From contig CACZAN010000008.1 of assembly GCA_902779165.1 (NCBI GenBank), forward strand, positions 1 through 64,000: a stretch of 64,000 nucleotides of DNA, given 5' to 3'. The notes under the pieces are model-generated. The model saw only the letters and a program-made list of their open reading frames with translations. It had not been told where the DNA came from and did not search any database. Of the stretch, positions 5,346 through 21,052 are shown in pieces. Position numbers and translations under genes: made by a program. Every line of letters begins with the position of its first letter. The stretch's first letter is position 1. This stretch comes from an uncultured Bacteroidales bacterium. GTDB taxonomy: Bacteria; Bacteroidota; Bacteroidia; Bacteroidales; Bacteroidaceae.

Positions 5346-5429
5346 TGAGTTGAAGCGGAAGGGGTCTTCACGTGATTAAAGGTGGCCGCCGGATTCTGGA
5401 CACTTCTTCTCGCAAAACAACTCAAGACA

Positions 5430-6101
5430 ATGACAAACATTCCTATTTTCAACAACCAACAGACGATGACGTCGCTCGAGATTGCCGAGCTGACGGGTAA
5501 ACAACACAAAGACCTCATGAAGGCTATCAGAAAGATGGAGCCTGCATGGGAAAAAGTGCATGGGCGCAAATTTGCGCTGATGTTCCGAGAGGTAAGAATC
5601 GGCAACGGTGCCGTTCGCTGTGATCCCTACTACGAACTGACGAAGACGGAGTGCCTGTACATCGCCACGAAGTTCAACGACGAGGCTCGCGCACGGCTGG
5701 TGCTGCGCTGGGAGGAGCTGGAGCTGGAAGAGCGCAAGCGTCATCAGCAGCTCTACCTGCCCGAACCTCATGAGATCCTGGCGCTGGCCGACGAGATCAT
5801 CGGTGAGGGGCTTCGCGAGCTGAACGCCGACGCTGAGGACTCGCTGACGGCGACGCAGGTGGCGAAGACGTTCAACATGACGGTCTTTGACTTCAACGCG
5901 GTGCTGGCGGAGATGGGCATCCAGTACCGCAGCCGCGGGCACTGGAACATCGCCGACGAGCTGGCCGACCGCAACCTGGTGCGCCAGCGCACCCATGTCT
6001 CCTACTCGCTGAAGGGCGAGAAGAAGGTGAAGGTGTACATGACGTGGACGCTGGACGGCCTGCGCTATCTGAATGCCAAACTGGGATACCCTAATTTCTA
6101 A
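5430..6101 (+). CDS. Phage regulatory protein, Rha family with C-terminal KilAC/ANT-like domain
   Basis: Residues about 10-95 match the Rha phage regulatory domain: MTSLEIAELTGKQHKDLMKAI is its hallmark start, and YELTKTECLYIATKF follows. Residues about 130-220 (LTATQVAKTFNM, YRSRGHWNIADE) fit a KilAC/ANT-type DNA-binding domain. Rha proteins are carried by prophages and other mobile elements and affect lysogeny or host interference; here no structural phage genes are present. I chose the ATG at 5430 because upstream codons are not conserved in character. It precedes the BT4734/DUF3987 gene by 48 nt and may be co-transcribed with it. Confidence 0.8.
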   Translation: MTNIPIFNNQQTMTSLEIAELTGKQHKDLMKAIRKMEPAWEKVHGRKFALMFREVRIGNGAVRCDPYYELTKTECLYIATKFNDEARARLVLRWEELELEERKRHQQLYLPEPHEILALADEIIGEGLRELNADAEDSLTATQVAKTFNMTVFDFNAVLAEMGIQYRSRGHWNIADELADRNLVRQRTHVSYSLKGEKKVKVYMTWTLDGLRYLNAKLGYPNF

Positions 6102-6149
6102 TCCTGAAATCGTAAAATATACCGAATTTATTACAAGGATGGGGCGAAG

Positions 6150-8621
6150 ATGATGCGCCCCGTCCTCTCGCGCCCGGAGTACCTGACGCTGAGGAACAGC
6201 GGGGACCAGATTGCTAATGTCGGCCGCATCCGCGAGGGCGATGAGCGGCAGAAGCATAAGCTGGTGCAGATGAACTACAGCTGTCTGCCCAACGAGAACG
6301 GGAGCCTGAAAGGCTCGAAGACGATGAGCTCGACGGTGGGCATGGACATCGACCACATCGCGCCGGAGGAGATGCTGCCGCTGCGAGAGCGCATCCTGAC
6401 GAAGAAGGACGAGCTGGGGCTGCTGATGCTGGAGATGAGTGCCCGAGGGAAGGGCTACCATCTGGTGTTCCGCCGCCGCCCTGAGATGAGTCAGGAGGAG
6501 AACCTGCGCTGGGCCAGTGAACTGCTGGGCGTGGAGTTCGACAAGGGCGCCAAGGACATCACAAGGGTGTTCTTCACCACGACGGCGAGTGAGGAGGATT
6601 TGATTTATCTAAGTGATGAGATCTTCAGAGCAGACCCACCCCTCACCCAAGACCCACCCCCAACCCAAGACCCACCCCTCACCCTCCCTGTGAGGGAGGG
6701 AGTGGTATCAACTGAGCGGGCATCCGCCTCACGCGCTACTAATGTATCTACTCCCCTCCCTAACGAAGTGGCCAGGGTAGCGAGGGAAGAGGAGGTTGAC
6801 TTAATGTCAAACTCCCCGAGCGACCGAAGATTAACTCCTAATCTGAGGACGGACAGGCTGGGAGGTGGGTCTACTCCATCCCCCGCCTCGCTTACGGCCT
6901 TCGACCTCTGCGCTCAGCAGGCGGGGTTGAATGCCGGCGCGATGGATGTTTGGGGTGAGCACAACTGGCACACGAACCTGATGGCGGTGCTGTCGGTGGG
7001 TGTGGCCAAGCTGATGAGTCGCCAGCAGCTGCGGGCGGTGGTGGCCGTAAGGTTGCCGAACTACTCTGCCACTGAGGACTGCCAGAAGCTTATCGACTAT
7101 TTCTACGACAAGTACGATGCCGACAAGGGCTTTATGAACGCCTCGCTGCGCGAAATCAATGCCAAGGCGCAGAAGAAGGACGATGAGGGACGTCAGATGG
7201 AAGATGTTGAGACGGATCTGGACGAAGAGCAACTTTCAACGTTTCAACGTTTCAACTTTTCAACTCGAAAGATGCCGCAAGGGGTGAAGGAATCGATTGA
7301 TGCTGTAGGGCCTGCTTTGGCGATGCCTGTGGTGACGGCCATCTGCCCGTGTATCGGGGCGCTGGCAACGGGCGTGGTGCTCGATGTGCACAACCAGAAG
7401 AAGGGGCTGAACCTCATCAGCTACATCGCGGGCGACTTCGCAAGCGGCAAGGGCTCGATAGACCCCGTCGTCGATGCCTGGATGGGCGAGGTGAAGGCGC
7501 TGGACATCATGTACCAGCAGCAGGAAGATGAGTGGCGCGCCAAGAAACGCGCGGCCAAGAACAAGAAGGAACAGCCCGAAGAACCGAAGCTGCCGGTAAG
7601 GTGTCTGACCCTCAACAACACCGTTGCCAACCTGGCCGAGCGACTGGCCAACACGGAGGGCAAGCACGCATTTTCCTTTACACCGGAGGCTGATACGGTG
7701 GCACAGAAATGGAAGTCCACGATGAGCGATTTCTCGGTGATGCTTCGCCAGAGTTACGATGGCACCAAATACGAACGCGAGGCACGCAGTGCGGAGGCCG
7801 TGAATGTGCATATCGACCGGCTGTTGTGGAACGTGACGATGTGCGGCACTCCCGATGCCCTCTACCGCGTGGTCTCAAACTACACCGATGGTTTTCAGAG
7901 CCGTATCGCCGTAGCCCGCACCCCTGACAACACCTATGCTCCGTTGGAAGATAAACCGCCTGTGCTGACTGCTCGCCAGCAGGAACGCATCCAGCAGGTG
8001 GCCCATCTGCTGCCACTGATGCAGGGCGAGGTGGTGTTGCCGAAGTTAGAGGCCAAAGGGCGCGAGTGGTTGGAGGTCGTCCGCTTGGAGACGATGAAAA
8101 ATGACGATAAGGTGCGTGCCCGCCAGCGCTTCCGCGTGTGTGTGACGGCCCAGCGCATGACCTGCTGCCTGATGCTCTGCAAGGTGTGCGAGGGACTGAT
8201 TCAGAAGTACGGACTGAATGGTGCCGAGGCGCAGCTGAAGCAGAAGCCCAGCCTGTGGCGGGAACTGCTGCTGAAGGCGCAGACGCCCACTATGCTGGAG
8301 GTCTTCGACATCATCGCCGACTCCCTGATAGAGAACGCCCTGTACTTCTTCCGCGAACGCATAGAGAATGCCTTCGGCAGCAGGGATTATGCGGGAGGTA
8401 GCGAGCGCAGACGTAGCAGCAAGAATGATTCCATCTTCGAGCGACTGGACGTAGAGTTCAACTTTGACCAGGCTTTTCAACAGAGTGTTGCCATCAAAGG
8501 GGCTGGTGTTTCGCGAAATAGCGTGCAACAGATGCTAAAGAACTGGCGCAGACAAGGGCTAATCGTTCAAACAGAGAAGTTCCGCTACAGGAAAGAGTTG
8601 GAAATAGTCATTAGTCATTAA
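6150..8621 (+). CDS. BT4734-type N-terminal domain plus DUF3987 helicase-like protein
   Basis: The 823-residue protein starts with a BT4734/VirE-N-like primase-type domain (about residues 45-155, with VGMDIDHI and RGKGYHLVFR). A linker and a middle domain (WGEHNWHTNLMAVLS) follow. The DUF3987-like ATPase region starts near residue 370, with a Walker-A-like GDFASGKGS. The end carries a winged-helix-like segment (SRNSVQQMLKNWRRQG). Such proteins are widespread in Bacteroidales mobile and capsule-linked loci and may act in replication of an element; the activity is not proven. Two repeats are read through in frame: a MITE-like element (6633-6871) and an octamer array (7233-7264). The stop codon lies in a third array. 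Confidence 0.8.
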   Translation: MMRPVLSRPEYLTLRNSGDQIANVGRIREGDERQKHKLVQMNYSCLPNENGSLKGSKTMSSTVGMDIDHIAPEEMLPLRERILTKKDELGLLMLEMSARGKGYHLVFRRRPEMSQEENLRWASELLGVEFDKGAKDITRVFFTTTASEEDLIYLSDEIFRADPPLTQDPPPTQDPPLTLPVREGVVSTERASASRATNVSTPLPNEVARVAREEEVDLMSNSPSDRRLTPNLRTDRLGGGSTPSPASLTAFDLCAQQAGLNAGAMDVWGEHNWHTNLMAVLSVGVAKLMSRQQLRAVVAVRLPNYSATEDCQKLIDYFYDKYDADKGFMNASLREINAKAQKKDDEGRQMEDVETDLDEEQLSTFQRFNFSTRKMPQGVKESIDAVGPALAMPVVTAICPCIGALATGVVLDVHNQKKGLNLISYIAGDFASGKGSIDPVVDAWMGEVKALDIMYQQQEDEWRAKKRAAKNKKEQPEEPKLPVRCLTLNNTVANLAERLANTEGKHAFSFTPEADTVAQKWKSTMSDFSVMLRQSYDGTKYEREARSAEAVNVHIDRLLWNVTMCGTPDALYRVVSNYTDGFQSRIAVARTPDNTYAPLEDKPPVLTARQQERIQQVAHLLPLMQGEVVLPKLEAKGREWLEVVRLETMKNDDKVRARQRFRVCVTAQRMTCCLMLCKVCEGLIQKYGLNGAEAQLKQKPSLWRELLLKAQTPTMLEVFDIIADSLIENALYFFRERIENAFGSRDYAGGSERRRSSKNDSIFERLDVEFNFDQAFQQSVAIKGAGVSRNSVQQMLKNWRRQGLIVQTEKFRYRKELEIVISH
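6633..6871. mobile_element. MITE-like element, copy 2, inside a coding sequence
   Basis: The segment starts with GACCCACCCC (repeated three times as GACCCACCCCTC or CAA variants), contains CCCTCCCTGTGAGGGAGGG and a second CCCTCCC, and ends with GGTGGGTC in inverted orientation. It is read through in the BT4734/DUF3987 frame as a Pro- and Thr-rich, then Ser- and Arg-rich linker. Confidence 0.55.
7233..7264. repeat. Octamer array inside coding sequence
   Basis: Four 8-bp units (CTTTCAAC, GTTTCAAC, GTTTCAAC, TTTTCAAC) lie within the BT4734/DUF3987 gene just before its DUF3987-like part and are translated as STFQRFNFST. Confidence 0.75.
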
Positions 8622-8637
8622 GTCATTAGTCATTAAG
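8606..8637. repeat. Short-repeat array spanning a stop codon
   Basis: Alternating 7- and 8-bp units AGTCATT/AGTCATTA form an array that supplies the last codons and the stop (8619-8621) of the BT4734/DUF3987 gene. The same unit is used at 747-778 and 872-895. Confidence 0.75.
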
Positions 8638-8648
8638 GATTTTGGATT

Positions 8649-9035
8649 ATGGATATTACCAACACCCAAGAATGCTTCGTGCAGCTCTGGCTACGGTTAG
8701 AGCGCACGAGGCGCCTCCTCGGAGGTCAGTACAAGCGTTTCTGCATCAGGAACTTGCTGCGGTCGTGGTTCGGCCTCCGCGCCACCGACGACTTCATCTG
8801 GGAGGTCATCCATCGCATAGACCTCGACGATGAGGATGCCCCCTGCGGCTACGATGAACTGCCACCGCCCTCGCTCTATCCGCGCAAGCATCGCGAACTG
8901 CTGCGCGCCATCGTGTCGGTACGGCTGGGCATCAGCTATTACCGTGTGAACCTCCGTGCCCTCGACGCCGCGTACAGCGTGGCGTTTCCGAAGAGTACGG
9001 CGATAAATGTAAGTAAGAAAAGTTTAAGAGTTTAA
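8649..9035 (+). CDS. Unrecognised 128-aa protein
   Basis: It begins MDITNTQECFVQLWLRLERT and has a basic first half (GGQYKRFCIRNLLRSWF) and an acidic middle (RIDLDDEDAP). No family is recognised, and there is no signal peptide or membrane segment. It starts 28 nt after the BT4734/DUF3987 gene, across a short-repeat array, so it may share a transcript. The final residues (KKSLRV) and stop codon are encoded by the start of the GTTTAAAG array, so the true ancestral end may have been different. Confidence 0.6.
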   Translation: MDITNTQECFVQLWLRLERTRRLLGGQYKRFCIRNLLRSWFGLRATDDFIWEVIHRIDLDDEDAPCGYDELPPPSLYPRKHRELLRAIVSVRLGISYYRVNLRALDAAYSVAFPKSTAINVSKKSLRV

Positions 9036-9092
9036 AGGTTTAAGAGTTTAAAGTTTAGAGTTTGAAATTTAAAGTTTAGAGTTTAGAGTTCG
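9017..9092. repeat. Short-repeat array (GTTTAAAG type) spanning a stop codon
   Basis: Units of 7 or 8 bp around GTTTAAAG/GTTTAGA begin inside the last codons of the preceding gene and run into palindromic composite copy C. A second stretch of the same unit lies at 9338-9381 just before the M15 peptidase gene, so the composite is bracketed by matching arrays. Confidence 0.75.
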
Positions 9093-9335
9093 CAAGTGAT
9101 GCCGTAGGCATCAATTTCCAATGCCCCAGCGGCATAACAATGTGATAATAACCTTTAACGCAATGCCCCAGCGGGGCATGACAGAGGTAGCCAGCCATTT
9201 TAATGGCTGGTATAAGATGGAAAAGAATATGCGTGCCTTTAGGTACGCGACATCAAATCCCTGTCGCGTACCTACGGCACGCTATCCATTAACATCATCA
9301 TTACCAGCCATTGAAATGGCGGCATCACTTACGAA
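9089..9335. repeat. Palindromic composite repeat, copy C (rearranged)
   Basis: It contains GATGCCGTAGGCATC, two versions of the CCCCAGCGG(GG) hairpin, AGCCAGCCATTTTAATGGCTGG, and two GTACGCGACA/GCGTACCTACGG hairpins. The order resembles copy A but with a duplicated middle and without a recognisable core hairpin pair. It fills the gap between the gene ending at 9035 and the M15 gene. Confidence 0.75.
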
Positions 9336-9337
9336 GC

Positions 9338-9381
9338 TTGAGGTTTAAGGTTTAAAGTTTAAGAGTTTAAAAGTATAAAGT
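9338..9381. repeat. Short-repeat array (GTTTAAAG type), leader of the M15 gene
   Basis: Units AGGTTTAA/AGTTTAAG run up to the start codon of the M15 peptidase gene and match the array at 9017-9092. Confidence 0.7.
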
Positions 9382-9382
9382 T

Positions 9383-9850
9383 ATGCAATTGACAAAACAT
9401 TTTACATTACAGGAGTTCGAGCGGTCGGGAGCGGCCGCCCGGCTCCACATCGACAACAGGGTGCCGGCGGAGCTGGTGCCGAACATCAAGAATCTGTGCG
9501 AGGAGGTGCTGGAACCGCTGAGGGAGCACTTCGGCGAACCTGTTTATGTCAGCAGCGGCTACCGCTGTGCGGAACTGAATCGGGCCGTGGGAGGAGTAAA
9601 GAGCAGCCAGCACATGCGGGGCGAGGCGGCGGATATTTGTCCCTTTATTCTATCGAAGGAGGGGAGGCTGGTGCCCGACTCCCATAGCCCCGAGGCGCGG
9701 AAGAAGATGCGCGAGTGGGCGGAGTGGATCATGGATAACCTGCACTTCGACCAGCTGCTGCGCGAGCACAGCGGCAGCAGCTACTGGCTGCACGTGTCGC
9801 TGAAGCGGGTGGGGAGGAATCGGCAGGTGACGTTGAAAATTAGAAAATAA
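9383..9850 (+). CDS. M15-type D-Ala-D-Ala carboxypeptidase-like peptidase
   Basis: The 155-residue protein matches the Peptidase_M15_3 family: LTKHFTLQEFERS at the start, VYVSSGYRCAELNRAVGG in the middle, then SSQHMRGEAADI with the zinc-binding His and Asp, and YWLHVSLKR carrying the last zinc His. These enzymes cleave peptidoglycan stem peptides and are common in phages and Bacteroidales accessory modules near HU-like and BT4734-type genes. No signal peptide is seen, which fits a phage-endolysin-like ancestry or export by another route. The stop codon lies in a 16-bp repeated sequence. Confidence 0.9.
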   Translation: MQLTKHFTLQEFERSGAAARLHIDNRVPAELVPNIKNLCEEVLEPLREHFGEPVYVSSGYRCAELNRAVGGVKSSQHMRGEAADICPFILSKEGRLVPDSHSPEARKKMREWAEWIMDNLHFDQLLREHSGSSYWLHVSLKRVGRNRQVTLKIRK

Positions 9851-10012: not shown

Positions 10013-10130
10013 GTGTTCATTTTGTGTGTGGTGAGGCCAAAGGTGGGTGAAAAGATGTAAAGTTGGGCGGGTTGGCGTGCGAAAATGTTACTTTTTTGGA
10101 TTTTTTGGTGATAAATTGAATTTATTTTGG

Positions 10131-10138
10131 TACTTTTG
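10131..10138 (+). promoter_or_regulatory. Probable promoter -7 box of the NRPS operon
   Basis: TACTTTTG matches TAnnTTTG. A TTTG at 10104-10107 is 23 nt upstream, slightly longer than the usual spacing. The start codon follows within 12-33 nt, so the leader is very short. Confidence 0.6.
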
Positions 10139-10149
10139 CCGTCTGAATT

Positions 10150-12399
10150 ATGATAATAACCACAAAAAATATGCGCCATACTTTACTCTTGTTGGTCTTT
10201 GTCCCGCTGATGTCATGGGCCCAGGAAAATGATTCCACTGCTGTGGCCGACGTTCAGGGCGACGACCGCAATGTAATGCTCGATGCTTCGGCCTCAGCCA
10301 AGCCTCGCGACATTCCTATCGGTCTGCCGGGCGAGACGGGCGGCACGATGATCATGGAAGACGGTATGCCTGTGGCCTCGACATGGAGTCCTATCTACCC
10401 CTATGTTCACTGGGCAGGCGGCAGCAGCTATGCTGATGTGGGTCTGATGGGCATCGAGGAGACGGCGCTGCGTTCGGGTGTGCTGGGCTTCTCGGTCAAC
10501 AGCCATACCGCGTTGGGTTCGGACAAGTTGCACGGCACGTTCAGCGCAAAGACCAATAACGACGGCCTCATCCTCGTGGACGGCAACCTGAACGGTGCGC
10601 TGGCCAAGGGGTGGTACTTCACCGCTGGGGTGTATGCCAACCTCGACCCCACGTCGGTGCATCCGAAGCATGTGACCTTCGTCAACAACACGCAGATCTA
10701 CAAGGCGGGTGTGACCCATCGCTGGGGGCAGTCAGAGGCTTCGGTGCTGTATAAGCTCACGATGAACCGCGACGGACTGTTCGGCTGTGACCGCGCTCCC
10801 TTCATCTACAACGGCGACGGCAGCATCAGCCAGCTCAACGGCTTCCGTCTGGGGCGCGACTCATATATGCCCTCTGATGTGCGATTCAGCTATATGGACT
10901 TGGAGACGGGTCAGCTGCACGATACGGATGTCAATGACGAGAACCGCCGCCTGATCCACGACCTGACGCTGATGATGAATAATCGGCTGAACGACCGCTG
11001 GAGTCTGGACAGCCGCGTGCACCTGACGGGCACCAAGAACATGAAGATGATCGGTTTCTCTGAGACGGGCATCGACGAGATCACGAACGGCCAGGACGCC
11101 AAGGGACGCAGCATCACTACGGCCGACGGGCAGCAGTACAGCGGCCTGATGCAGCAGCGCCTGCTCTTTGCCCAGCACTTTGATTTCTTCGAGACGCTGG
11201 CCAAGACGGAACTCGTGCGCAAATGGAACGGCCGCACCACGAACCTGGGTCTGAGCTACTGGTTCTCTTACCAATATGCCCAGGCTGCCAACGTGACCAT
11301 CGCCCAGTCGGTGGAGAACAATCCTTCGAGGCTGCTGGTCAACGGCAACCGGCAATGGGACTACAACAGCTCGGCGAACTACGGTCGCGGCCGCGAACAT
11401 TTCCTCAGCCTCTATGCCATCGACGACTGGAATGTGACTCCGCGGCTGAACCTCTTCTACGGCCTGCGTGCAGAGCTGTTCCACAGCAACTATGATATCG
11501 CTGTGAACGAGGGCGCGCAGACCAACAACAAACGGCATCCGGGTTTCTATGTCAACGACGGCACCGCCAGCATCAGCACCCACAAGCGCACGAAGATGAA
11601 CATCATCGGTGTGGCGCGCGCCAACTACCAGCTGGTCTCGCGGCTGTTCCTCACGGGAGAGTATCTCTACTGCAACCAGCAGCGGCGTTTCGACCAGTTC
11701 CGCTTCGAGACCCTGCCCAGCGAGAAGCCTTACGTGAAGCAGCTGCTGCGCGCAGGCATCAGCTATGAGAACTCCTGGGTGCACGCCTCTGCGATGTTCA
11801 GCTATATCAACAGCCGCAATATCGGTTCCACGCAGTACTTCACCAAGCAGGTGGGAGGCGTCAGCGAGACGCAGGGCAAGAACACTACCTATGATATCGG
11901 CACGCTGGGCGTCACGGCCGACGCCACGTTCATGTTCGGCGATTTCTCGATGCACGTGCTCGCCACCTATCAGGAACCCAGGTACCGGAACTTCAGCGTA
12001 CCCCTGACGTTCAGCGACGGCTCGACAGAGGTGCTGGACTACAACCGCAACTACGTCACGGGCATGTCGCGGGTGCTGCTGGAGCTGGATCCCAGCTATC
12101 GGATCAAGAACTGGCGCCTGTGGGTCAGCGCCCGCTACTACAGCCGCCAGTATGCCTCGCTGGTGAACAATGTCTACTTCGACGGCCACTGGGAGACCTT
12201 CGCTGGCGTGGATTGGACGGTGAACAAGCGGCTGAAGCTGCAGCTCAGCGCCACCAATCTCTTCTTCCAGTCGGGAGCCAACGGCAGCATTGCCGCCGCC
12301 AACACCATCACCGACGACTCGCTGCTGAAGGGCTATTACACGGCGGGTACGTTCATCCGTCCGTTCACCGTCAGCCTGTCGGCCACCTATAAATTCTGA
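10150..12399 (+). CDS. TonB-receptor-like outer-membrane barrel
   Basis: A 749-residue outer-membrane protein. A signal peptide is visible (MRHTLLLLVFVPLMSWAQ, if translation starts at the second ATG, 10171). Next comes a plug-like stretch (GETGGTMIMEDGMPVAS, PYVHWAGGSSYADVGL, VNSHTALGSDKLHG), then many amphipathic strands rich in Tyr, Trp and Arg, ending in SLSATYKF with the terminal Phe typical of barrels. I see no clear TonB box and no carboxypeptidase-like N-terminal domain, so the plug is short. The NRPS gene starts 25 nt downstream. A role in uptake, sensing or release of the NRPS product or its metal complex is inferred from context. Confidence 0.8.
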   Translation: MIITTKNMRHTLLLLVFVPLMSWAQENDSTAVADVQGDDRNVMLDASASAKPRDIPIGLPGETGGTMIMEDGMPVASTWSPIYPYVHWAGGSSYADVGLMGIEETALRSGVLGFSVNSHTALGSDKLHGTFSAKTNNDGLILVDGNLNGALAKGWYFTAGVYANLDPTSVHPKHVTFVNNTQIYKAGVTHRWGQSEASVLYKLTMNRDGLFGCDRAPFIYNGDGSISQLNGFRLGRDSYMPSDVRFSYMDLETGQLHDTDVNDENRRLIHDLTLMMNNRLNDRWSLDSRVHLTGTKNMKMIGFSETGIDEITNGQDAKGRSITTADGQQYSGLMQQRLLFAQHFDFFETLAKTELVRKWNGRTTNLGLSYWFSYQYAQAANVTIAQSVENNPSRLLVNGNRQWDYNSSANYGRGREHFLSLYAIDDWNVTPRLNLFYGLRAELFHSNYDIAVNEGAQTNNKRHPGFYVNDGTASISTHKRTKMNIIGVARANYQLVSRLFLTGEYLYCNQQRRFDQFRFETLPSEKPYVKQLLRAGISYENSWVHASAMFSYINSRNIGSTQYFTKQVGGVSETQGKNTTYDIGTLGVTADATFMFGDFSMHVLATYQEPRYRNFSVPLTFSDGSTEVLDYNRNYVTGMSRVLLELDPSYRIKNWRLWVSARYYSRQYASLVNNVYFDGHWETFAGVDWTVNKRLKLQLSATNLFFQSGANGSIAAANTITDDSLLKGYYTAGTFIRPFTVSLSATYKF

Positions 12400-12424
12400 G
12401 AATAACCATTAAAAAACCTACTAT

Positions 12425-15400
12425 ATGAAAACTTCCGCACCATTATCTAAAGTACAATTCGGTCTCTACGTGGAGTGTGTGGCACATCAGGGAGAGGCTT
12501 GTTATAATCTGCCTTATCTCTATGTGCTCGACGGCACTCTGGACGAGGAGAAACTCAAGGGGGCCATCGAGACTGCTGTGGCAGCCCACCCTACCCTGTT
12601 CACCCGCATCGAACTGAACAGCGACGGCGACCCGCTGCAAACCATTGATGATGCAGAGACCTTCAGCCTCGAGGTGGAGCCGGTGGAGAACCTGAATCTC
12701 GAGGGGAAATCCTTCACCGAACAGCTGGCGGCTCTCAACTACCTCATCGTGCCCTTCGACATCTACAACGACCGGCTGTTCCATATCCGCCTGCTGAAGG
12801 ATGCAGAGCACTTCTACTTCTTCCTCGACATCCACCACATCATCGGCGACGGAACAACGCTGAAGGTGATGCTGGCCGATCTGGAGAAAGCCTACAACGG
12901 CGAGGCGCTGGAACCCGAGGCACTGACGATGGCGGAAGTGGCAACGGCAGAGGCCGAGCTGCGCAAGACGGCAGCTTTCGAGGAAGGCAAGCAATGGTAT
13001 GCCCAGAACTTCGACTGCGGCGACTGCTACACGCAGCTGATGCCCGACCTGGAGATTCCGGAACACTCGGAGGCAAGTATGGTGCGCACCCTGGGCGTGG
13101 ATATGGCCCGCGTAGATACCTTCTGCAAGGAGAAAGGTATCTTCAAGAGCAATTTCTTCACCACGGTCTACAGCTTCCTGCTGGCAAAATACAATAATGA
13201 ACAGGAGTCGCTGTTCACCACCATCTACAACGGACGCACAGACAAGCGATTCCTCCACTCTGTGGGCATGACGGTGAAGACGCTGCCCGTGTATGCGAAG
13301 TTCGACAACGAAACGAAGGTGCTGGATTACCTGAAGGCCGGGCAGGATCAGATGAGCGGTTGCCGCAAGCACGATGTCTATGCCTTCAGCGATGTGGTGA
13401 ACGACCTCGGGCTGCAGAGCAACTCGATGTTTGCCTGGCACGGAATGATGTTTGCCGACGAGAAGCTGTGCGACAAGCCCATGAAGACCATTCGCCTGTG
13501 CAACAGCACGCTGGAAGCATCGCTCTACCTGAAAGCCTTCATCCTGAACGGCAAATACCAGGTCAAGGCAGAATACAACTCCAACGAATATTCGCCCGAA
13601 ATCATCAGCCAGTATCTGGAAAGCTACGAGGCGGTGGTGGAGGGATTCCTCACCGAGGAGTATCTGCGCGATGTGGACATCACCACGCCCTCGCAGGTGG
13701 CAACGCTCGACAGCTTCAACCAGACCGAAGTGCCCTATGACGACACCCAGACCATCGTTTCGCTGTTCCGCCAGCAGGCGAAGGCTACGCCCGATAGCAT
13801 CGCTGTCGTCTACAAGGACAAGAAATATACCTATGCCGAAGTGGATGCCATCAGCGACCGCATTGCCGGGTACATCTCCAGCAAGGGACTGGGCGCAGAG
13901 GATGTGGTCTCGGTACTCATTCCCCGTTGCGAGTGGATGGCCATTGCCTCGCTGGGTGTGCTGAAAGCCGGCTGTGCCTACCAGCCCCTGGATCCCACCT
14001 ATCCGAAAGAGCGCCTGAACTTCATGATGCAGGATGCGAGCGCGAAGCTGCTGATTGCCGACGAAGAGCTGCGCCCCATCGTGGACGAGTATCAGGGCGA
14101 GGTGCTGCTGACCAAGGATTTCCTGAACCTCGAAATGACGGAATGCCTGAATGTCGAGGTGAAGCCCAGCAACTTGTTTATTCTTCTCTATACCTCCGGC
14201 TCTACGGGCGTTCCCAAGGGCTGTCAGCTGACTCACGGCAATCTCGTCTGCTTCTGCCACTGGTATCAGCGCTACTACAGCCTGCAGCACGGACACAAGG
14301 TGGCCGCCTATGCCAGCTACGGCTTCGATGCCTGCATGATGGATATGTATCCGGCTCTCACCTGTGGTGCCACCCTCTATATCGTTCCCGAGGAACTGCG
14401 CCTGGATCTGGTGGCCCTGAACGACTACTTCGAGCGCGAGGCGATCACCCATTCCTTCATGACCACCCAGGTGGCCTATCAGTTCGCTTCGAATATCGAG
14501 AACCACACGCTGCAGTACCTCTCGACAGGTGGCGAGAAGCTGGCTTCCATCACCCCGCCTAAGGGCTTTAAGCTCATGAACGTCTATGGTCCCACGGAGA
14601 CCACGGTGCTCGTGACCGTCTTCGATGTAGTGCGCAAGCTCCAGGATATTCCCATCGGCCACGCTATCGATAATATGCACCTCTATGTAGTTGACCCGCA
14701 GGGGCATCGTCTGCCCGCAGGTGCTGCCGGCGAGCTGTGGATCAGCGGCCCTCAGGTGAGTCGGGGCTATCTGAACCGTCCGGAGAAGACGGCAGAGGTG
14801 TTTATTGCCAATCCCTTTGTGGCGCAGGGAACTGAAAAGTATGATCGCGTCTATCGCACGGGCGACATCGTGCGCTACCTGCCTGACGGCAACATTCAGT
14901 TCGTGGGCCGCAGAGACGGTCAGGTGAAGATTCGCGGTTTCCGCATTGAGCTGAAGGAGGTGGAAACCGTGATCCGCGAGTTCCCCGGCATCAAGGATGT
15001 CACCGTGCAAGCCTTCGAAGAAGAAGGGGGAACGGGCAAGTTCGTGGCTGCATATATCGTCAGCGACCAGCAGATAGATATCGAGGCCCTGAACGACTTC
15101 ATCCTCGACCAGAAGCCGCCGTATATGGTGCCCGCTGTGACGATGCAGATAGATGCCATTCCCCTGAACCAGAACCAGAAGGTGAACAAGCGTGCACTGC
15201 CGAAGCCCGTGAAGGCTGCTGCGGCAGAGTCACAGCAAACGGTGCAGGCACCCATGAACGTGCTGGAACAGGAGCTGCACGAGATGATTGCCGCCATCGT
15301 GAACAACACCGAATTCAATATCACCACCGTGCTGGGCTATGCAGGCCTCACCTCGATCTCCGCCATCAAGCTCGCTGTGCAGATGAACAAGCGCTACGGC

Positions 15401-18400
15401 GTCTCGCTCGACGCGAAGAGCCTGGTGAAGAGCGGCACCCTGCAGAGTATTGAGAATGAAATCCTGAAAGGCTTCATGAATCAGGGCTCAGGAGCCGCCG
15501 TCGAAGCAAAGGCCGCGACCAGCGCATCTCTCGAGCGTGCGGCCCTCTCCTATGCACAGATGGGTGTCTACTTCGAGTGCCTGAAGAATCCTACTTCAAC
15601 GATATACAACATTCCTTATCTGCTCAGCTATCCTGCTGGAGTGGAGGCCGCGAAACTGGCAGACGGCGTGAAGAAGGTCGTGGAGGCCCATCCCGAAATG
15701 GGCGTTCACTTTACGACCGAGGGCGACGCCATCGTGCAGACCTTAGCCGACAGCGTGGCAGTAGAAGTGCCCATCACGGAGATGAGTGACGAGGCATTGG
15801 CGGCTTACAAGAATGAGTTTGTGCGCCCGTTCAATCTGCAGAAAGCACCCCTCTACCGCTTTGAGGTGGTGAAGACCGAGAGCGGAGTGCACCTGTTGAT
15901 GGACGTGCATCACCTCGTCTTCGACGGCGGATCTGCCGACCTGCTGATACGTCAGATAAGTGCAGCCCTCGAAGGAAAGCCCGTAGAGAAGGAGGCCTAT
16001 ACCTATCTCAACTTCGTGAGCGACCAGCAGCAGGCTCAGGAGAGCGACACCTTCGAGTCCGCCCGGCAGTTCTTTGCCGAAAAGCTGCAGACCTGCGAGG
16101 GAGCCAGCGAGATTCCTGCCGACCTGCCCAAAACCGAGCAGCAGGGCTTCATCGGCGAGGCCGTATGCCCGGCAGATTACGACAAGGCAGCAGCCTTCTG
16201 TCGTCAGCAGGAAATCACTCCTGCCCACCTCTTCCTGGCTGCCACGAGCTATGTCATCTCGCGCTACACCAACAACCGCGAGGTCTATCTCAGCACCATC
16301 AGCAGCGGGCGCTCGAACCTGAAGATTGCAGACACGGTGGGCATGTTCGTGAATACCCTTGCCCTCGGACTGAATATCGACGACGTGACCGTTGCCGAGT
16401 ATCTGCATCAGGTCTGCAACACCTTCGATGAGACGTTGCGCCATGAGGACTATCCCTTTGCCCGCATCGCTACAGACTTCGGTTTCCAGCCCGCCATCGC
16501 ATACGCCTATCAGGTGGGCGTGCTCTCGCAGTACATGGTCAATGGCCAGCCCATTCATCAGGAACTGCTGGAACTGAATGTGCCGAAGTTCAAGATCAAT
16601 ATCAAGATAGAGTCGCGTGGCGTGCTGGTGCAGTACGACGACTCGCTCTATTCCCAACGTCTGGGCAACGCCCTGGCAGAGAGCATCGTGGCCGTAGCCG
16701 AACGTATGATTGCCCAACCGCAGATGAAGGTGCGCCAGCTGTCGATTGTCAGCAAGAATCAGGAAGAGGAACTGAGCCACCTGCGCCAGACGGCAACCGG
16801 AGAAGCACCTTTCAAGCTGTTCCATGAGTGCATCGGCCATTTCGCAGAGCAACAACCGGACCAGGAGGCACTGGTCGCTTGCGATGCCACCTACACCTAT
16901 CGTGAGATGGACGAACTGACGAACCGCATTGCCAATGGTCTTCGCCAGCGTGGCGTAGAGACTGGTGACCGTGTGGCCTTGTTGCTGCCGCGCACCAGCC
17001 GCCTCATCCTCTCGCTCTTCGGTGTGCTGAAAGCCGGTGCTGCCTACATCCCCTGCGATCCCGACTATCCTGCCGACCGCGTGAAGCTGATTCTTGAAGA
17101 CAGCGAGGCGAAGCTGATCATCACACCCGAGCTGGCCGAGGAACTCCTGAAGACAGCCGAAACCGAACAGCCCGCTACAAACGTCACTCCAGACGACCTT
17201 GCATACCTGATCTATACCAGTGGTTCCACAGGTCGTCCCAAGGGCGTGATGTTGCGCCACGAGGGCATCTGCAACTACCTCTATGGTCATCCGGCGAATG
17301 TCTTTGCCCATGCTGTGATGACCGATGCCAAGCGGATGCTGAGTGTGACCACTATTTCGTTTGATGCAGCACTGCAGGATATCGGCATGTGTTACTTCAA
17401 TGGTAAGACCCTGATTCTGGCAACAGAGGAACAGGCCAACAATCCCATCGACCTGGCACATCTGATGCAGGAGCAACAAATCAATATGGTCAGCGGAACA
17501 CCTTCGCGCTGGCAAACATGGCTCACCAGCCCCGATTTCTGCGATGCCATTGCAAAGGTGAATATCTGCCGCGCTGGTGGCGAGAAGTTCAGCGACCAGC
17601 TGCTCTCACAGATGCGCAGTGTCACGAAGGCACGCATCTTCAACTGCTATGGTCCCACGGAGATTACGGTGGCATCGAACAATGCAGAACTGACAGACGT
17701 GAAGCTGGTGACTGTCGGCAAGCCGCAGCTGAATGTCAAGGAGTTCATCGTGGATGCCGATGGGAATGAATTGCCTGCTGGCGTGGTGGGTGAACTATAT
17801 ATCGGAGGTCGCGGCGTAGCCCGAGGCTATAACAACCTCGATGAGATGACCCGCGAACGCTTTGTGGAGTATCACGGCACACGTATCTACAAGTCGGGCG
17901 ACTATGCCAAGTGGCTGCCCGATGGAAATGTAGTCATCCTCGGACGTACTGACCATCAGATCAAGCTGCGTGGTCTGCGTATAGAGCTGGGCGAGATCGA
18001 AAACGTCATGCTGAAGGTCGAGGGCGTGAAGAAAGTGGTTATCCTCATCCGCAAGCTGAACGACAAGGAGCACCTCTGTGCATACTATACTGCCGACCGC
18101 GACATTGCACCCGATGTGCTGAAAACTGAAATCTCGAAGAGCCTGACACAATACATGGTGCCAACGGCTTATCTGCAGCTCAAGGAAATGCCGATGACCC
18201 CCAACGGCAAGACAGACGTGAAGGCACTGCCCGAGCCTCAGCTGGCTCTCAGCGGAGAGTATGAGGCACCGGCCAACGACACGGAACGCACCTTCTGTGA
18301 CATCTTCGCCAAAATCCTTCAGATGGATAAGGTGGGAGCCACCGACAACTTCTTTGACCTCGGAGGAACATCACTGGTCGTCACGCGTGTCATCATCGAA

Positions 18401-19696
18401 GCCGACAAGGCTGGAGTGCATGTGGCCTACGGCGATGTCTTCGCCAACCCGACACCGCGCAAGTTAGCAGAACTGGTTACTGGCGAGACGGTCGAGACGG
18501 GTGCTGATGAGATCACGGGCTTCGACTATACCGCCATCAACAACCTGCTGCAGCGCAACACCCTTGCCAACTTCCGAAAGGGCGAGCGCCAACAGCTGGG
18601 CAATGTCCTGCTGACAGGTGCTACAGGTTATCTGGGCATCCACATCCTGCGTGAACTTATCGACTCGGATGCAGCGAATATCTACTGTCTGGTTCGAGGA
18701 AAGACCCAGGAGGCAGCAGAGAACCGTTTGCGCAGTCTGCTCTATTACTACTTCTCCGACTCTTTCAAGAGCCTCTTCGGCAACCGCCTGCATATCATCT
18801 TGGGTGATGTGACAGAAGACTTGACAGAGAAATTGTCAGGAGTAGACTGTCAGCTGTCAACGGTCTTCAACTGCGCAGCCATCGTGAAGCACTTCTCCGA
18901 GGGAACGGAGATTGAAGACGTGAACATCGGCGGTGCCAAACGTTGTGTGGAATTCTGCATCCAGACTGGTGCCAAACTCGTGCATATATCCACAGCCAGT
19001 ACCCGTGGTATGTGGGCTGGCGACATCAAGGACGACATCTTCACAGAGCAGCGTCTCTACATGGGGCAGTATCTGGGCAACAAGTACATCTACTCGAAGT
19101 TCATGGCCGAGCGGCTCATCCTCGATGCGATAGCCCTGCATGGGCTGAATGCAAAGATTATGCGTGTCGGTAATCTGGCAGCCCGCTCCACAGACGGTGA
19201 GTTCCAGGCAAACTTCAGCACCAACTCGTTCATGGGCCGCATCAAGGTCTACAATATGTTGGGTTGCTGCCCGTATTCCATGCGTAACAAACGGGTGGAG
19301 TTCTCGCCCATCAACGAAGTGAGCAGCGCCATTGTGCTGTTGGCCACCACGCCTAAGGAGTGCGTTGTCTTCCATCCATACAACATTCACGGTCAGTTCC
19401 TGGGCGATGTGCTTATGGGTCTGAAGAGTGTGGGCGAAGGTATCCGTTTCGTGGAACAAGAGGAGTTCGCACAGGCTATGGATGAGGCCAAGAGTGATCC
19501 GCAGAAGGCACGCCAGATGGCTTCGCTGTTGGCTTATCAGGATATGGCTCATGGCCAGAAGACGGCAGATGTCGCTCGCGACAACGACTACACCACTCAG
19601 GTGCTATATCGCCTCGGCTTCGCCTTCTCGCCCACTTCGTGGGACTATGTTGAACGCATGCTCACCACGATTGGTGGATTCGGTTTCTTTGAGTAA
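12425..19696 (+). CDS. Dimodular nonribosomal peptide synthetase, C-A-T-C-A-T-R
   Basis: The 2423-residue enzyme has condensation domain 1 (HHIIGDG near residue 137), adenylation 1 (YTSGSTGVPKG near 590, VYGPTETT), carrier 1 (GLTSI near 975), condensation 2 (HHLVFDG near 1162), adenylation 2 (YTSGSTGRPKG near 1597), carrier 2 (LGGTSL near 1980) and a thioester reductase (GATGYLG near 2064; YIYSK near 2220). All catalytic motifs look intact. Known relatives of this layout couple two amino acids and release a dipeptide aldehyde with NADPH; these can cyclise to imines or pyrazinones. A first condensation domain may add an acyl cap. No phosphopantetheinyl transferase or MbtH gene lies nearby. It is co-directional with a barrel and a MATE exporter. 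Confidence 0.92.
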   Translation: MKTSAPLSKVQFGLYVECVAHQGEACYNLPYLYVLDGTLDEEKLKGAIETAVAAHPTLFTRIELNSDGDPLQTIDDAETFSLEVEPVENLNLEGKSFTEQLAALNYLIVPFDIYNDRLFHIRLLKDAEHFYFFLDIHHIIGDGTTLKVMLADLEKAYNGEALEPEALTMAEVATAEAELRKTAAFEEGKQWYAQNFDCGDCYTQLMPDLEIPEHSEASMVRTLGVDMARVDTFCKEKGIFKSNFFTTVYSFLLAKYNNEQESLFTTIYNGRTDKRFLHSVGMTVKTLPVYAKFDNETKVLDYLKAGQDQMSGCRKHDVYAFSDVVNDLGLQSNSMFAWHGMMFADEKLCDKPMKTIRLCNSTLEASLYLKAFILNGKYQVKAEYNSNEYSPEIISQYLESYEAVVEGFLTEEYLRDVDITTPSQVATLDSFNQTEVPYDDTQTIVSLFRQQAKATPDSIAVVYKDKKYTYAEVDAISDRIAGYISSKGLGAEDVVSVLIPRCEWMAIASLGVLKAGCAYQPLDPTYPKERLNFMMQDASAKLLIADEELRPIVDEYQGEVLLTKDFLNLEMTECLNVEVKPSNLFILLYTSGSTGVPKGCQLTHGNLVCFCHWYQRYYSLQHGHKVAAYASYGFDACMMDMYPALTCGATLYIVPEELRLDLVALNDYFEREAITHSFMTTQVAYQFASNIENHTLQYLSTGGEKLASITPPKGFKLMNVYGPTETTVLVTVFDVVRKLQDIPIGHAIDNMHLYVVDPQGHRLPAGAAGELWISGPQVSRGYLNRPEKTAEVFIANPFVAQGTEKYDRVYRTGDIVRYLPDGNIQFVGRRDGQVKIRGFRIELKEVETVIREFPGIKDVTVQAFEEEGGTGKFVAAYIVSDQQIDIEALNDFILDQKPPYMVPAVTMQIDAIPLNQNQKVNKRALPKPVKAAAAESQQTVQAPMNVLEQELHEMIAAIVNNTEFNITTVLGYAGLTSISAIKLAVQMNKRYGVSLDAKSLVKSGTLQSIENEILKGFMNQGSGAAVEAKAATSASLERAALSYAQMGVYFECLKNPTSTIYNIPYLLSYPAGVEAAKLADGVKKVVEAHPEMGVHFTTEGDAIVQTLADSVAVEVPITEMSDEALAAYKNEFVRPFNLQKAPLYRFEVVKTESGVHLLMDVHHLVFDGGSADLLIRQISAALEGKPVEKEAYTYLNFVSDQQQAQESDTFESARQFFAEKLQTCEGASEIPADLPKTEQQGFIGEAVCPADYDKAAAFCRQQEITPAHLFLAATSYVISRYTNNREVYLSTISSGRSNLKIADTVGMFVNTLALGLNIDDVTVAEYLHQVCNTFDETLRHEDYPFARIATDFGFQPAIAYAYQVGVLSQYMVNGQPIHQELLELNVPKFKINIKIESRGVLVQYDDSLYSQRLGNALAESIVAVAERMIAQPQMKVRQLSIVSKNQEEELSHLRQTATGEAPFKLFHECIGHFAEQQPDQEALVACDATYTYREMDELTNRIANGLRQRGVETGDRVALLLPRTSRLILSLFGVLKAGAAYIPCDPDYPADRVKLILEDSEAKLIITPELAEELLKTAETEQPATNVTPDDLAYLIYTSGSTGRPKGVMLRHEGICNYLYGHPANVFAHAVMTDAKRMLSVTTISFDAALQDIGMCYFNGKTLILATEEQANNPIDLAHLMQEQQINMVSGTPSRWQTWLTSPDFCDAIAKVNICRAGGEKFSDQLLSQMRSVTKARIFNCYGPTEITVASNNAELTDVKLVTVGKPQLNVKEFIVDADGNELPAGVVGELYIGGRGVARGYNNLDEMTRERFVEYHGTRIYKSGDYAKWLPDGNVVILGRTDHQIKLRGLRIELGEIENVMLKVEGVKKVVILIRKLNDKEHLCAYYTADRDIAPDVLKTEISKSLTQYMVPTAYLQLKEMPMTPNGKTDVKALPEPQLALSGEYEAPANDTERTFCDIFAKILQMDKVGATDNFFDLGGTSLVVTRVIIEADKAGVHVAYGDVFANPTPRKLAELVTGETVETGADEITGFDYTAINNLLQRNTLANFRKGERQQLGNVLLTGATGYLGIHILRELIDSDAANIYCLVRGKTQEAAENRLRSLLYYYFSDSFKSLFGNRLHIILGDVTEDLTEKLSGVDCQLSTVFNCAAIVKHFSEGTEIEDVNIGGAKRCVEFCIQTGAKLVHISTASTRGMWAGDIKDDIFTEQRLYMGQYLGNKYIYSKFMAERLILDAIALHGLNAKIMRVGNLAARSTDGEFQANFSTNSFMGRIKVYNMLGCCPYSMRNKRVEFSPINEVSSAIVLLATTPKECVVFHPYNIHGQFLGDVLMGLKSVGEGIRFVEQEEFAQAMDEAKSDPQKARQMASLLAYQDMAHGQKTADVARDNDYTTQVLYRLGFAFSPTSWDYVERMLTTIGGFGFFE

Positions 19697-19720
19697 ACGA
19701 TATGCAATAGCAATAAGTAT

Positions 19721-21052
19721 ATGAATCAAGCAGAAAGAAAAGCATTCAACAGCCAGTTCTGGCGTTTCCTGTGGTCGGCAATCCTTATCGCCCTTTCCGG
19801 CTGTCTGGGTAATGTCGTGGATGCGATTATCGTAGGCAATCTCATTGGCGAGGATGCTGTCAGCGCCATCAACCTGACACGTCCGGTGGTACAGTTCATG
19901 TTCACGCTGAACATGCTTCTGGCCGCAGGAGCAGGTATGCTGGTGGGAGTGGAAATAGGCAAGAAGAACATGTCGCGCGCTGCCTATTTTTATACGCTGT
20001 CCTTGACGTCATGCCTGATAGTTGGACTGCTGTTTACCCTGACAGGTTTGTTCTGTCCGGATACGGTCACCGGTCTGTTGTGCAACAACGAGCACCTCTT
20101 TCAGCCTACATACAAGTATTTAAGTATTATGCTGATAGGCTCACCTGCCTACATGCTCATGTGGGCCCTCTCTACGATGGTGGGGGTTGATGGCAGCCCG
20201 AGGCTTGTTTCCATTGCCATACTGATAGACAACGCTGTCAACCTGTCGCTCGACATCGTCTTTATTCAGCTCTTAGGCTGGGGCATCGGAGGCTCTTCAA
20301 CGGCGACCATTGTAGGACACATTGTGGGTATTGCCATTATGTGCTGGCATTTCCGCTACAAGGACAACCACCTGCGGCTGCTGTTCCAGGACGTAGAGCT
20401 GAAGTTCAGGAACGCCCTATCACAAATCATCTCCCAGGGTGCACCGCTGGCTATTGCTTCTGTCTGTCTTACGCTGCTGCTGTTCAGTGCCAACAACATT
20501 GTGCTGTCGTCATTAGGGCGCACGGGTATCTTTGCCTTCGCCGTATGTATGAACCTTCTGCAGATCTACAACCTCTTCCTGGCTGGCGTCTGCCGGACCA
20601 TTCAGTCCTTAGGAGCCATTCAGGTGGGAAAAGGTGACAACGAGGCTTTCAGGCTGGTGCTGACAAAGTCGTTCGGCTTCATTACCATAGCGATGATCAT
20701 CACCTGTGTCTTTGTCTGGATCGACCCCCAGGTCATCACCCGTTTCTTCGGAGCCAGTGAGGCAGGCATGATTGCCGAGGGAAGTAGGGCACTGCGCATC
20801 TTCGCCCTGAGCTTCATTCCCTTCTGCTACATCTATGCGCTGATGATTGTCTACAAGCTGTATGGCTGCCACCGCATGGCGCTGTTCCTGTCCTTCGCTT
20901 TGTCGCTGACCGTCATCCCCGTTCTATGGATTGTTTCCAAAGTCGCTCCTGACTATTTGTGGTACAGCTATCTGATTGCCTACATCATCGAGGCTCTGCT
21001 CATCCTGCTGTTCCACCGTCTGGGGCATATCAAATGGGAACTCAGCAACTGA
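19721..21052 (+). CDS. MATE-family multidrug exporter
   Basis: A 443-residue integral membrane protein with about 12 hydrophobic segments and the MATE pattern near the N-terminus (GCLGNVVDAIIVGNLIGEDA) plus AVSAINLTRPV. MATE carriers exchange cations for small organic molecules across the inner membrane. It starts 25 nt after the NRPS gene in the same direction, so it is very likely the exporter of the peptide product or a self-protection pump. Length is normal for the family. Confidence 0.88.
   Translation: MNQAERKAFNSQFWRFLWSAILIALSGCLGNVVDAIIVGNLIGEDAVSAINLTRPVVQFMFTLNMLLAAGAGMLVGVEIGKKNMSRAAYFYTLSLTSCLIVGLLFTLTGLFCPDTVTGLLCNNEHLFQPTYKYLSIMLIGSPAYMLMWALSTMVGVDGSPRLVSIAILIDNAVNLSLDIVFIQLLGWGIGGSSTATIVGHIVGIAIMCWHFRYKDNHLRLLFQDVELKFRNALSQIISQGAPLAIASVCLTLLLFSANNIVLSSLGRTGIFAFAVCMNLLQIYNLFLAGVCRTIQSLGAIQVGKGDNEAFRLVLTKSFGFITIAMIITCVFVWIDPQVITRFFGASEAGMIAEGSRALRIFALSFIPFCYIYALMIVYKLYGCHRMALFLSFALSLTVIPVLWIVSKVAPDYLWYSYLIAYIIEALLILLFHRLGHIKWELSN

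What the first reader, a model, noticed from the sequence alone, without database searches (positions are those of the whole stretch)
10131..21052. Self-contained operon predicted to make, recognise and export a dipeptide aldehyde
A TonB-receptor-like barrel, a C-A-T-C-A-T-R NRPS with all catalytic motifs intact and a MATE exporter are packed with 25-nt gaps behind one promoter. Dimodular NRPSs with terminal reductases from gut bacteria are known to release dipeptide aldehydes that inhibit proteases and form pyrazinones. The added barrel suggests the product is also sensed or taken back up, perhaps as a surface-acting protease inhibitor or signal. The barrel-NRPS-MATE combination in a Prevotella-type genome is unusual to me.
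Basis: partly seen in the sequence, partly recalled or inferred. Interest (0 to 1): 0.85.

Follow-up and report, generated by a model that had tools for sequence, protein, structure and literature searches.

The report
Rumen peptide-aldehyde operon with borrowed barrel
A rumen-type bacterium carries a rearranged copy of a common gene set that probably makes and exports a small peptide aldehyde, with an unusual outer-membrane barrel beside it that few relatives share and whose job is not yet known.

Summary
The three genes are as described: a TonB-receptor-like barrel (10150-12399), a C-A-T-C-A-T-R NRPS with intact motifs (12425-19696) and a MATE exporter (19721-21052), 25 and 24 nt apart. The NRPS belongs to a cluster common in rumen Bacteroidales. 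In 49 of 68 relatives with enough upstream DNA, a sensor-SpoIIE fusion, a STAS protein and an AlgE-like outer-membrane porin lie directly upstream; a similar phosphatase-STAS-NRPS-MatE layout was published for Methanobrevibacter ruminantium in 2010. The barrel is rare: 1 of 80 NRPS loci, and a close copy in 1 of 138 other genus genomes. The three close barrels (79-84% identical) all lie beside an NRPS, in three arrangements; a fourth (62%, shortened) is in a genome where no such NRPS was found; more distant ones often lie near sugar-use genes. The window lacks the usual regulators and porin; a cluster-type regulator survives on another contig. The N-terminal C domain favours an N-acylated aldehyde over a pyrazinone.

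The parts
10104..10138 (+). Bacteroidetes-type promoter-like site: TTTG at 10104, TACTTTTG (TAnnTTTG) at 10131
   Evidence: 5 such full matches on the + strand of 64 kb, spacing 23 nt; consensus recalled, function not tested
10150..12399 (+). TonB-receptor-like outer-membrane barrel, 749 aa (possible true start 10171)
   Evidence: family of 17 aligned members; PF00593 in 5 of 17 (best 7.9e-6), not in the window member; family profile hits PiuA (5fok) at E 0.0039; dN/dS 0.066-0.108 among the three close barrels (synonymous sites near saturation)
12425..19696 (+). NRPS, 2423 aa, C-A-T-C-A-T-R
12425..13714 (+). first condensation domain (HHIIGDG), candidate N-acylating starter domain
   Evidence: starter class not resolved
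13829..15181 (+). first adenylation domain, pocket code DAMFSGVVLK (approximate bounds)
   Evidence: code positions recalled from GrsA; 69 of 89 aligned rows begin DAMFSG
16841..18211 (+). second adenylation domain, pocket code DAQSRGCVAK (approximate bounds)
   Evidence: same code in 64 of 89 aligned rows
18530..19693 (+). terminal thioester reductase domain
   Evidence: 6vtj 230 bits, AusA reductase 4f6c 123 bits; GATGYLG and YIYSK motifs
19721..21052 (+). MATE-family exporter, 443 aa
   Evidence: homologue in 65 of 80 related NRPS loci, directly after the NRPS in 49 of 69

Best explanation
A rearranged member of a peptide-aldehyde gene cluster that is common in rumen Bacteroidales. Inferred working: the NRPS joins two amino acids, probably after N-acylation by the first C domain; the reductase releases the product as a C-terminal aldehyde; MATE moves it across the inner membrane. 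In most relatives an AlgE-like porin in the same operon would carry it across the outer membrane, and a dCache-SpoIIE-HATPase protein with a STAS protein would switch expression. In the window these genes are not beside the NRPS; a cluster-type SpoIIE protein lies on another contig. The barrel is a rare accessory from a TonB-receptor-like family often found near sugar-use genes; most likely it is an energised outer-membrane transporter, and its ligand is not shown to be the product. Shown: gene content, order, motifs, conservation, rarity of the barrel, its linkage to NRPSs in three genomes. Inferred: product, export route, regulation, barrel ligand.
For: Anatomy and intact motifs. 80 NRPS loci by tblastn at bit-score cut-offs I set: SpoIIE fusion 65, STAS 70, AlgE-like porin 61, MATE 65, PPTase 36, barrel 1; among the 55 with at least 5 kb upstream and 3 kb downstream 51, 52, 48, 50, 32, 1 (anywhere in the locus). 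Directly adjacent order SpoIIE-STAS-porin upstream: 49 of 68; with MATE directly after as well: 37 of 68. Porin: AF2 mean pLDDT 81.5, the 17 best PDB matches all AlgE (TM about 0.6), Alginate_exp in 54 of 57 members. NRPS tree: window and L046 sisters (support 99), nested among loci with regulators and porin (quick method). Own-genome C29 SpoIIE protein, 59.7% to L054's, groups with five cluster-borne ones (support 100). No MATE match upstream of polA in 12 of 12 other genomes where at least 1.2 kb upstream could be read. 58 of 138 other genus genomes carry the reductase at E<=1e-50. Published like layout in M. ruminantium.
Against: I found no product, transcript or mutant. Genomes are draft MAGs (the window's 86% complete), so absence of the porin (no positive control in that call) is weak. 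Pocket codes rest on recalled positions. The starter class of the first C domain was not resolved. Barrel structure prediction failed (mean pLDDT 25.5). Linkage of all three close barrels could also mean the barrel is a true cluster part lost in most relatives.
Confidence: 0.72

Rival explanations
1. One reading: the barrel senses or takes back the cluster's own product, so that make, export and re-uptake form one loop.
For: The three close barrels (79-84% identity) lie beside an NRPS in three different orders: barrel-NRPS-MATE (window), NRPS-ligase-like gene-MATE-barrel (L046), STAS-barrel-NRPS (G447). Purifying selection, dN/dS 0.066-0.108.
Against: 79 of 80 NRPS loci show no such barrel. 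Barrel 79.6% identical between window and G447 while the NRPS is 58.4% and both pocket codes differ. A 62% barrel lies in a genome where no such NRPS was found. Of 15 loci with distant homologues none has the NRPS.
Confidence: 0.25
2. The barrel imports a nutrient, most likely a sugar or glycoside, and shares the operon only because both functions help in the same niche.
For: Of 15 Bacteroidales loci with 28-33% homologues, 5 hold a GH32-type cluster with fructokinase/sugar-MFS genes among them and 5 others a Nudix regulator of NrtR/AraR-like type (by clustering; one or two members of each cluster checked by Pfam). The barrel is more conserved than its NRPS partners.
Against: No sugar-use gene was seen in the window operon or in the L046 and G447 operons themselves; the sugar link of the distant homologues is by neighbourhood only.
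Confidence: 0.35
3. The barrel is the outer-membrane exit for the product and replaces the AlgE-like porin.
For: The porin was not found in the window genome and the barrel takes the porin's usual place directly upstream of the NRPS.
Against: L046 and G447 have both barrel and porin. TonB-receptor-like proteins normally import (established knowledge). The window genome is 86% complete.
Confidence: 0.15
4. A siderophore-like system: the NRPS product chelates metal and the TonB-type barrel brings it back.
For: The barrel family profile's only PDB hit is the iron receptor PiuA (E 0.0039); one of 17 members hits TIGR01783 (7.1e-07).
Against: No aryl-acid loading domain and no uptake gene in the three-gene operon; in relatives the usual outer-membrane partner is a porin.
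Confidence: 0.07

Closest known systems
Methanobrevibacter ruminantium M1 mru0066-0071 cluster (PMC2812497, passages read)
   Same: Serine phosphatases, anti-sigma factor antagonist, two-module NRPS beginning with a C domain, MatE exporter; rumen organism.
   Different: Archaeon, so no outer-membrane porin or barrel. The text says thioesterase, the Fig. S8 legend says thioester reductase. The window has no phosphatase or STAS gene beside its NRPS. Its sequence was not compared here.
Ruminopeptin and clostridial N-acyl dipeptide aldehydes (PMC8518294 and PMC12327764, passages read)
   Same: Gut NRPS lines releasing acylated dipeptide aldehydes (N-acyl Leu-Glu; N-octanoyl-Met-Phe-H) that inhibit proteases.
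   Different: Ruminococcus and Clostridium, so no outer-membrane parts. Window substrates not established. The original papers (Guo 2017, Schneider 2018) were not held and are recalled only.
AusA, aureusimine/phevalin synthetase
   Same: Dimodular NRPS with terminal reductase; NCBIfam's best model for the window NRPS (1123 bits) and the second-best reductase structure.
   Different: 1123 bits is below the model's cut-off of 2500; AusA (recalled) has no N-terminal C domain, so its dipeptide aldehyde can cyclise.
TonB-dependent receptors, e.g. PiuA (5fok)
   Same: Signal-peptide-like start, long barrel-like C-terminal part ending in F, weak family-profile match.
   Different: No Plug match; the window protein itself matches no model.

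Membership tests
Dipeptide-aldehyde NRPS | two modules and a terminal reductase with intact motifs | tested here: met
Dipeptide-aldehyde NRPS | aldehyde product | not testable with these tools
   needs expression and mass spectrometry
AusA equivalog (NF047350) | score over the curated cut-off | tested here: not met
   1123.2 against 2500
Rumen SpoIIE-STAS-porin-NRPS-MATE cluster | NRPS and MATE homologous to those of the 80 loci | tested here: met
Rumen SpoIIE-STAS-porin-NRPS-MATE cluster | regulators and porin beside the NRPS | tested here: not met
   no tblastn match in the window; porin not found in the genome; a cluster-type SpoIIE protein on contig C29
TonB-dependent receptor | barrel domain | tested here: inconclusive
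   PF00593 in 5 of 17 family members, not in the window member; structure prediction failed
TonB-dependent receptor | plug domain and TonB box | tested here: inconclusive
   no Plug match in 17 members; a conserved stretch near the mature N-terminus (window residues 41-60) reads like a plug start, by eye only
Siderophore receptor-NRPS pair | siderophore-specific biosynthesis or uptake genes in the operon | tested here: not met
   none among the three genes by Pfam and NCBIfam; metal binding of the product itself not testable

The most novel reading that the evidence does not exclude
A subset of rumen Bacteroidales has added a dedicated TonB-type receptor to a peptide-aldehyde cluster, so that the acylated aldehyde is pulled back through the outer membrane as a signal or to spare the producer's own envelope; the receptor recognises the constant acyl-aldehyde end, which would explain why it stays about 80% identical while the NRPS pocket codes change.
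Probability: 0.15. Interest if true: 0.75.

Novelty: new variant of a known kind. Interest (0 to 1): 0.45.

Why it matters
Rumen NRPS clusters are counted in thousands (5,346 in PMC8241843, passages), and I met no product for this one. The comparison gives a defined, testable cluster family: NRPS-reductase, MATE, an AlgE-like outer-membrane porin and a SpoIIE/STAS switch, which together suggest how a Gram-negative gut bacterium could make a peptide aldehyde and pass it through two membranes. The barrel variant would tell whether such a product is also taken up. Peptide aldehydes inhibit proteases, and proteolysis in the rumen matters for the animal's nitrogen economy (general knowledge).

Tried and rejected
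Barrel as conserved partner of the NRPS: rejected, 1 of 80 loci; in the genus 1 of 138 other genomes has a close copy and 9 more have only short weak matches of 24 bits or less. Barrel as recent transfer between clusters: not supported, synonymous sites are near saturation between the three close barrels (pS 0.62-0.65). Replacement of the porin by the barrel: weakened because L046 and G447 have both. Starter class of the first C domain from PDB neighbours: not resolved. Barrel fold from two sequences: failed. Porin profile against PDB sequences gave nothing useful; the fold search did. The gene-order tables rest on my own ORF caller, which lost some STAS genes to overlapping ORFs; the counts cited are therefore by tblastn. 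I saw no published description of the Bacteroidales cluster in the listings (titles and abstract starts only, apart from the papers named); that library lacks most subscription journals.

Rows left out: barrel alignment A1 holds 17 sequences, without the copy L038; porin alignment A3 holds 57 of 60 (L091, L103, L104 left out); the NRPS tree has 77 of 89 rows (one per locus, over 2150 aa). Of 24 polA neighbourhoods fetched, 12 had too little upstream DNA to count.

Full report
Observation. Pfam confirms C, A, T and reductase domains and MatE, and the motifs are intact. The genome shows no other Condensation domain. A Bacteroidetes-type promoter-like site lies directly upstream of the barrel. 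The unit may run on: polA follows MATE after 48 nt on the same strand.

The NRPS belongs to a common rumen family. In the window's genus 58 of 138 other genomes have its reductase at E<=1e-50 (counted from the listed rows; 11 more have weak matches); in the order, 6 of 392 others at E<=1e-60. By tblastn over the 80 loci (cut-offs mine, anywhere in the locus) 65 have a dCache-SpoIIE-HATPase protein, 70 a STAS protein, 61 a ~450-residue outer-membrane protein, 65 the MATE exporter and 36 a PPTase. SpoIIE-STAS-porin lie directly upstream of the NRPS in 49 of 68 loci with enough DNA, and MATE directly follows in 37 of these 68; MATE starts within 200 nt of the NRPS end in 49 of 69. The ~450-residue protein is predicted with mean pLDDT 81.5, its 17 best PDB matches are all the alginate exporter AlgE at TM about 0.6, and 54 of 57 members match Alginate_exp.

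The barrel. The window protein matches no Pfam or NCBIfam model, but its family profile finds the iron receptor PiuA at E 0.0039 and 5 of 17 members match the TonB barrel model. A search of 393 Bacteroidales genomes gave 16 others with a match, 14 of them with more than a short piece, at 28-40% identity. Of 15 loci read (up to 20 kb each) none held the NRPS; 5 held the GH32 cluster and 5 others the Nudix-regulator cluster. In the family search 62 of 398 other genomes matched at E<=1e-20; all listed matches but one were at 41% or less. Of 28 family loci read with flanks up to 1.5 kb, none held NRPS, MATE or the regulators.

Close barrels. Three genomes have barrels at 79-84% identity to one another: the window, L046 (SpoIIE-STAS-porin-NRPS-ligase-like gene-MATE-barrel) and G447 (SpoIIE-STAS-barrel-NRPS-small NRPS-MATE-porin). 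All three lie beside an NRPS. The fourth closest, G853 at 62%, is shortened at its C-terminus and lies on a 5.1-kb contig without NRPS (only 0.4 kb upstream could be read); its genome (89% complete) has no match better than 148 bits to the C2-to-reductase part of the NRPS. So linkage of close barrels is real, but the barrel is neither general nor strictly bound to this NRPS.

Does the barrel track the product? Between window and G447 the barrel is 79.6% identical, MATE 63.4%, NRPS 58.4% of aligned positions (54% by BLAST), and the ten-residue pocket codes differ in both modules (DAMFSGVVLK/DAQSRGCVAK against DVEFSAGIIK/DVSAVGGCGK; positions recalled). This speaks against recognition of the amino-acid side chains; a shared acyl or aldehyde end, or an unrelated ligand, remains possible. 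With three barrels this is a weak test.

Rearrangement. In the NRPS tree window and L046 are sisters inside loci that have regulators and porin, so the window's lack of them is probably derived. The window's genome keeps a SpoIIE protein on contig C29 that groups with five cluster-borne ones (59.7% to L054's); the porin was not found. Upstream of the barrel are phage-type genes. Twelve other genomes in which at least 1.2 kb upstream of polA could be read show no MATE there. A move of the NRPS unit to this place is the simplest reading; how it happened is not shown.

Product. The reductase is closest to 6vtj (230 bits) and the AusA reductase (123 bits). I recall 6vtj as an M. ruminantium carrier-reductase structure; the tool names only an NRPS and the paper was not held. 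With a C domain in front, an N-acylated dipeptide aldehyde like ruminopeptin (N-acyl Leu-Glu) is likelier than a pyrazinone. The arginine in the second pocket would suit an acidic residue; this is inference.

Verdict. The cluster type was foreshadowed in 2010 for a rumen methanogen, and rumen Bacteroidaceae NRPS clusters have been counted (934, PMC8241843, passages). New here, as far as I searched, are the AlgE-like porin as usual partner and the rare barrel variant.

Noticed in passing
L039-L118, e.g. L046:5869-7215 and L043:8603-9958: An AlgE-like outer-membrane porin is part of most of these NRPS operons: a possible dedicated outer-membrane exit for a small peptide in Gram-negatives.
   Followed up: partly
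L046:3314-5866: The usual operon begins with a dCache-SpoIIE-HATPase fusion and a STAS protein, a partner-switching module beside an NRPS.
   Followed up: partly
L148:5528-7732 (window genome contig C29): A cluster-type SpoIIE fusion protein sits far from the NRPS, with no STAS, porin or NRPS match on the 13 kb read.
   Followed up: yes
L052, L087, L090, L108, L097, L117: A second or larger NRPS gene beside the two-module one, so the family has longer assembly lines.
   Followed up: no
L046:14612-15964, also in L057 and L083: A ~450-residue ligase-like gene (AMP-binding match below the cut-off) close after the NRPS, possibly supplying the acyl group.
   Followed up: no
window 5382-9850: Phage-type genes (Rha/antirepressor, DUF3987, M15 endolysin-like) directly upstream of the operon.
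   Followed up: partly
window 39757-63611: Several large genes with Big_2 repeats, BspA-type leucine-rich repeats and Listeria-Bacteroides repeats, an EpsG-family gene and a dockerin-bearing gene; the 2384-residue ORF at 53082 was not scanned.
   Followed up: no
L205 (G853:C104): A 62% barrel, shortened at its C-terminus, in a genome where this NRPS was not found.
   Followed up: yes
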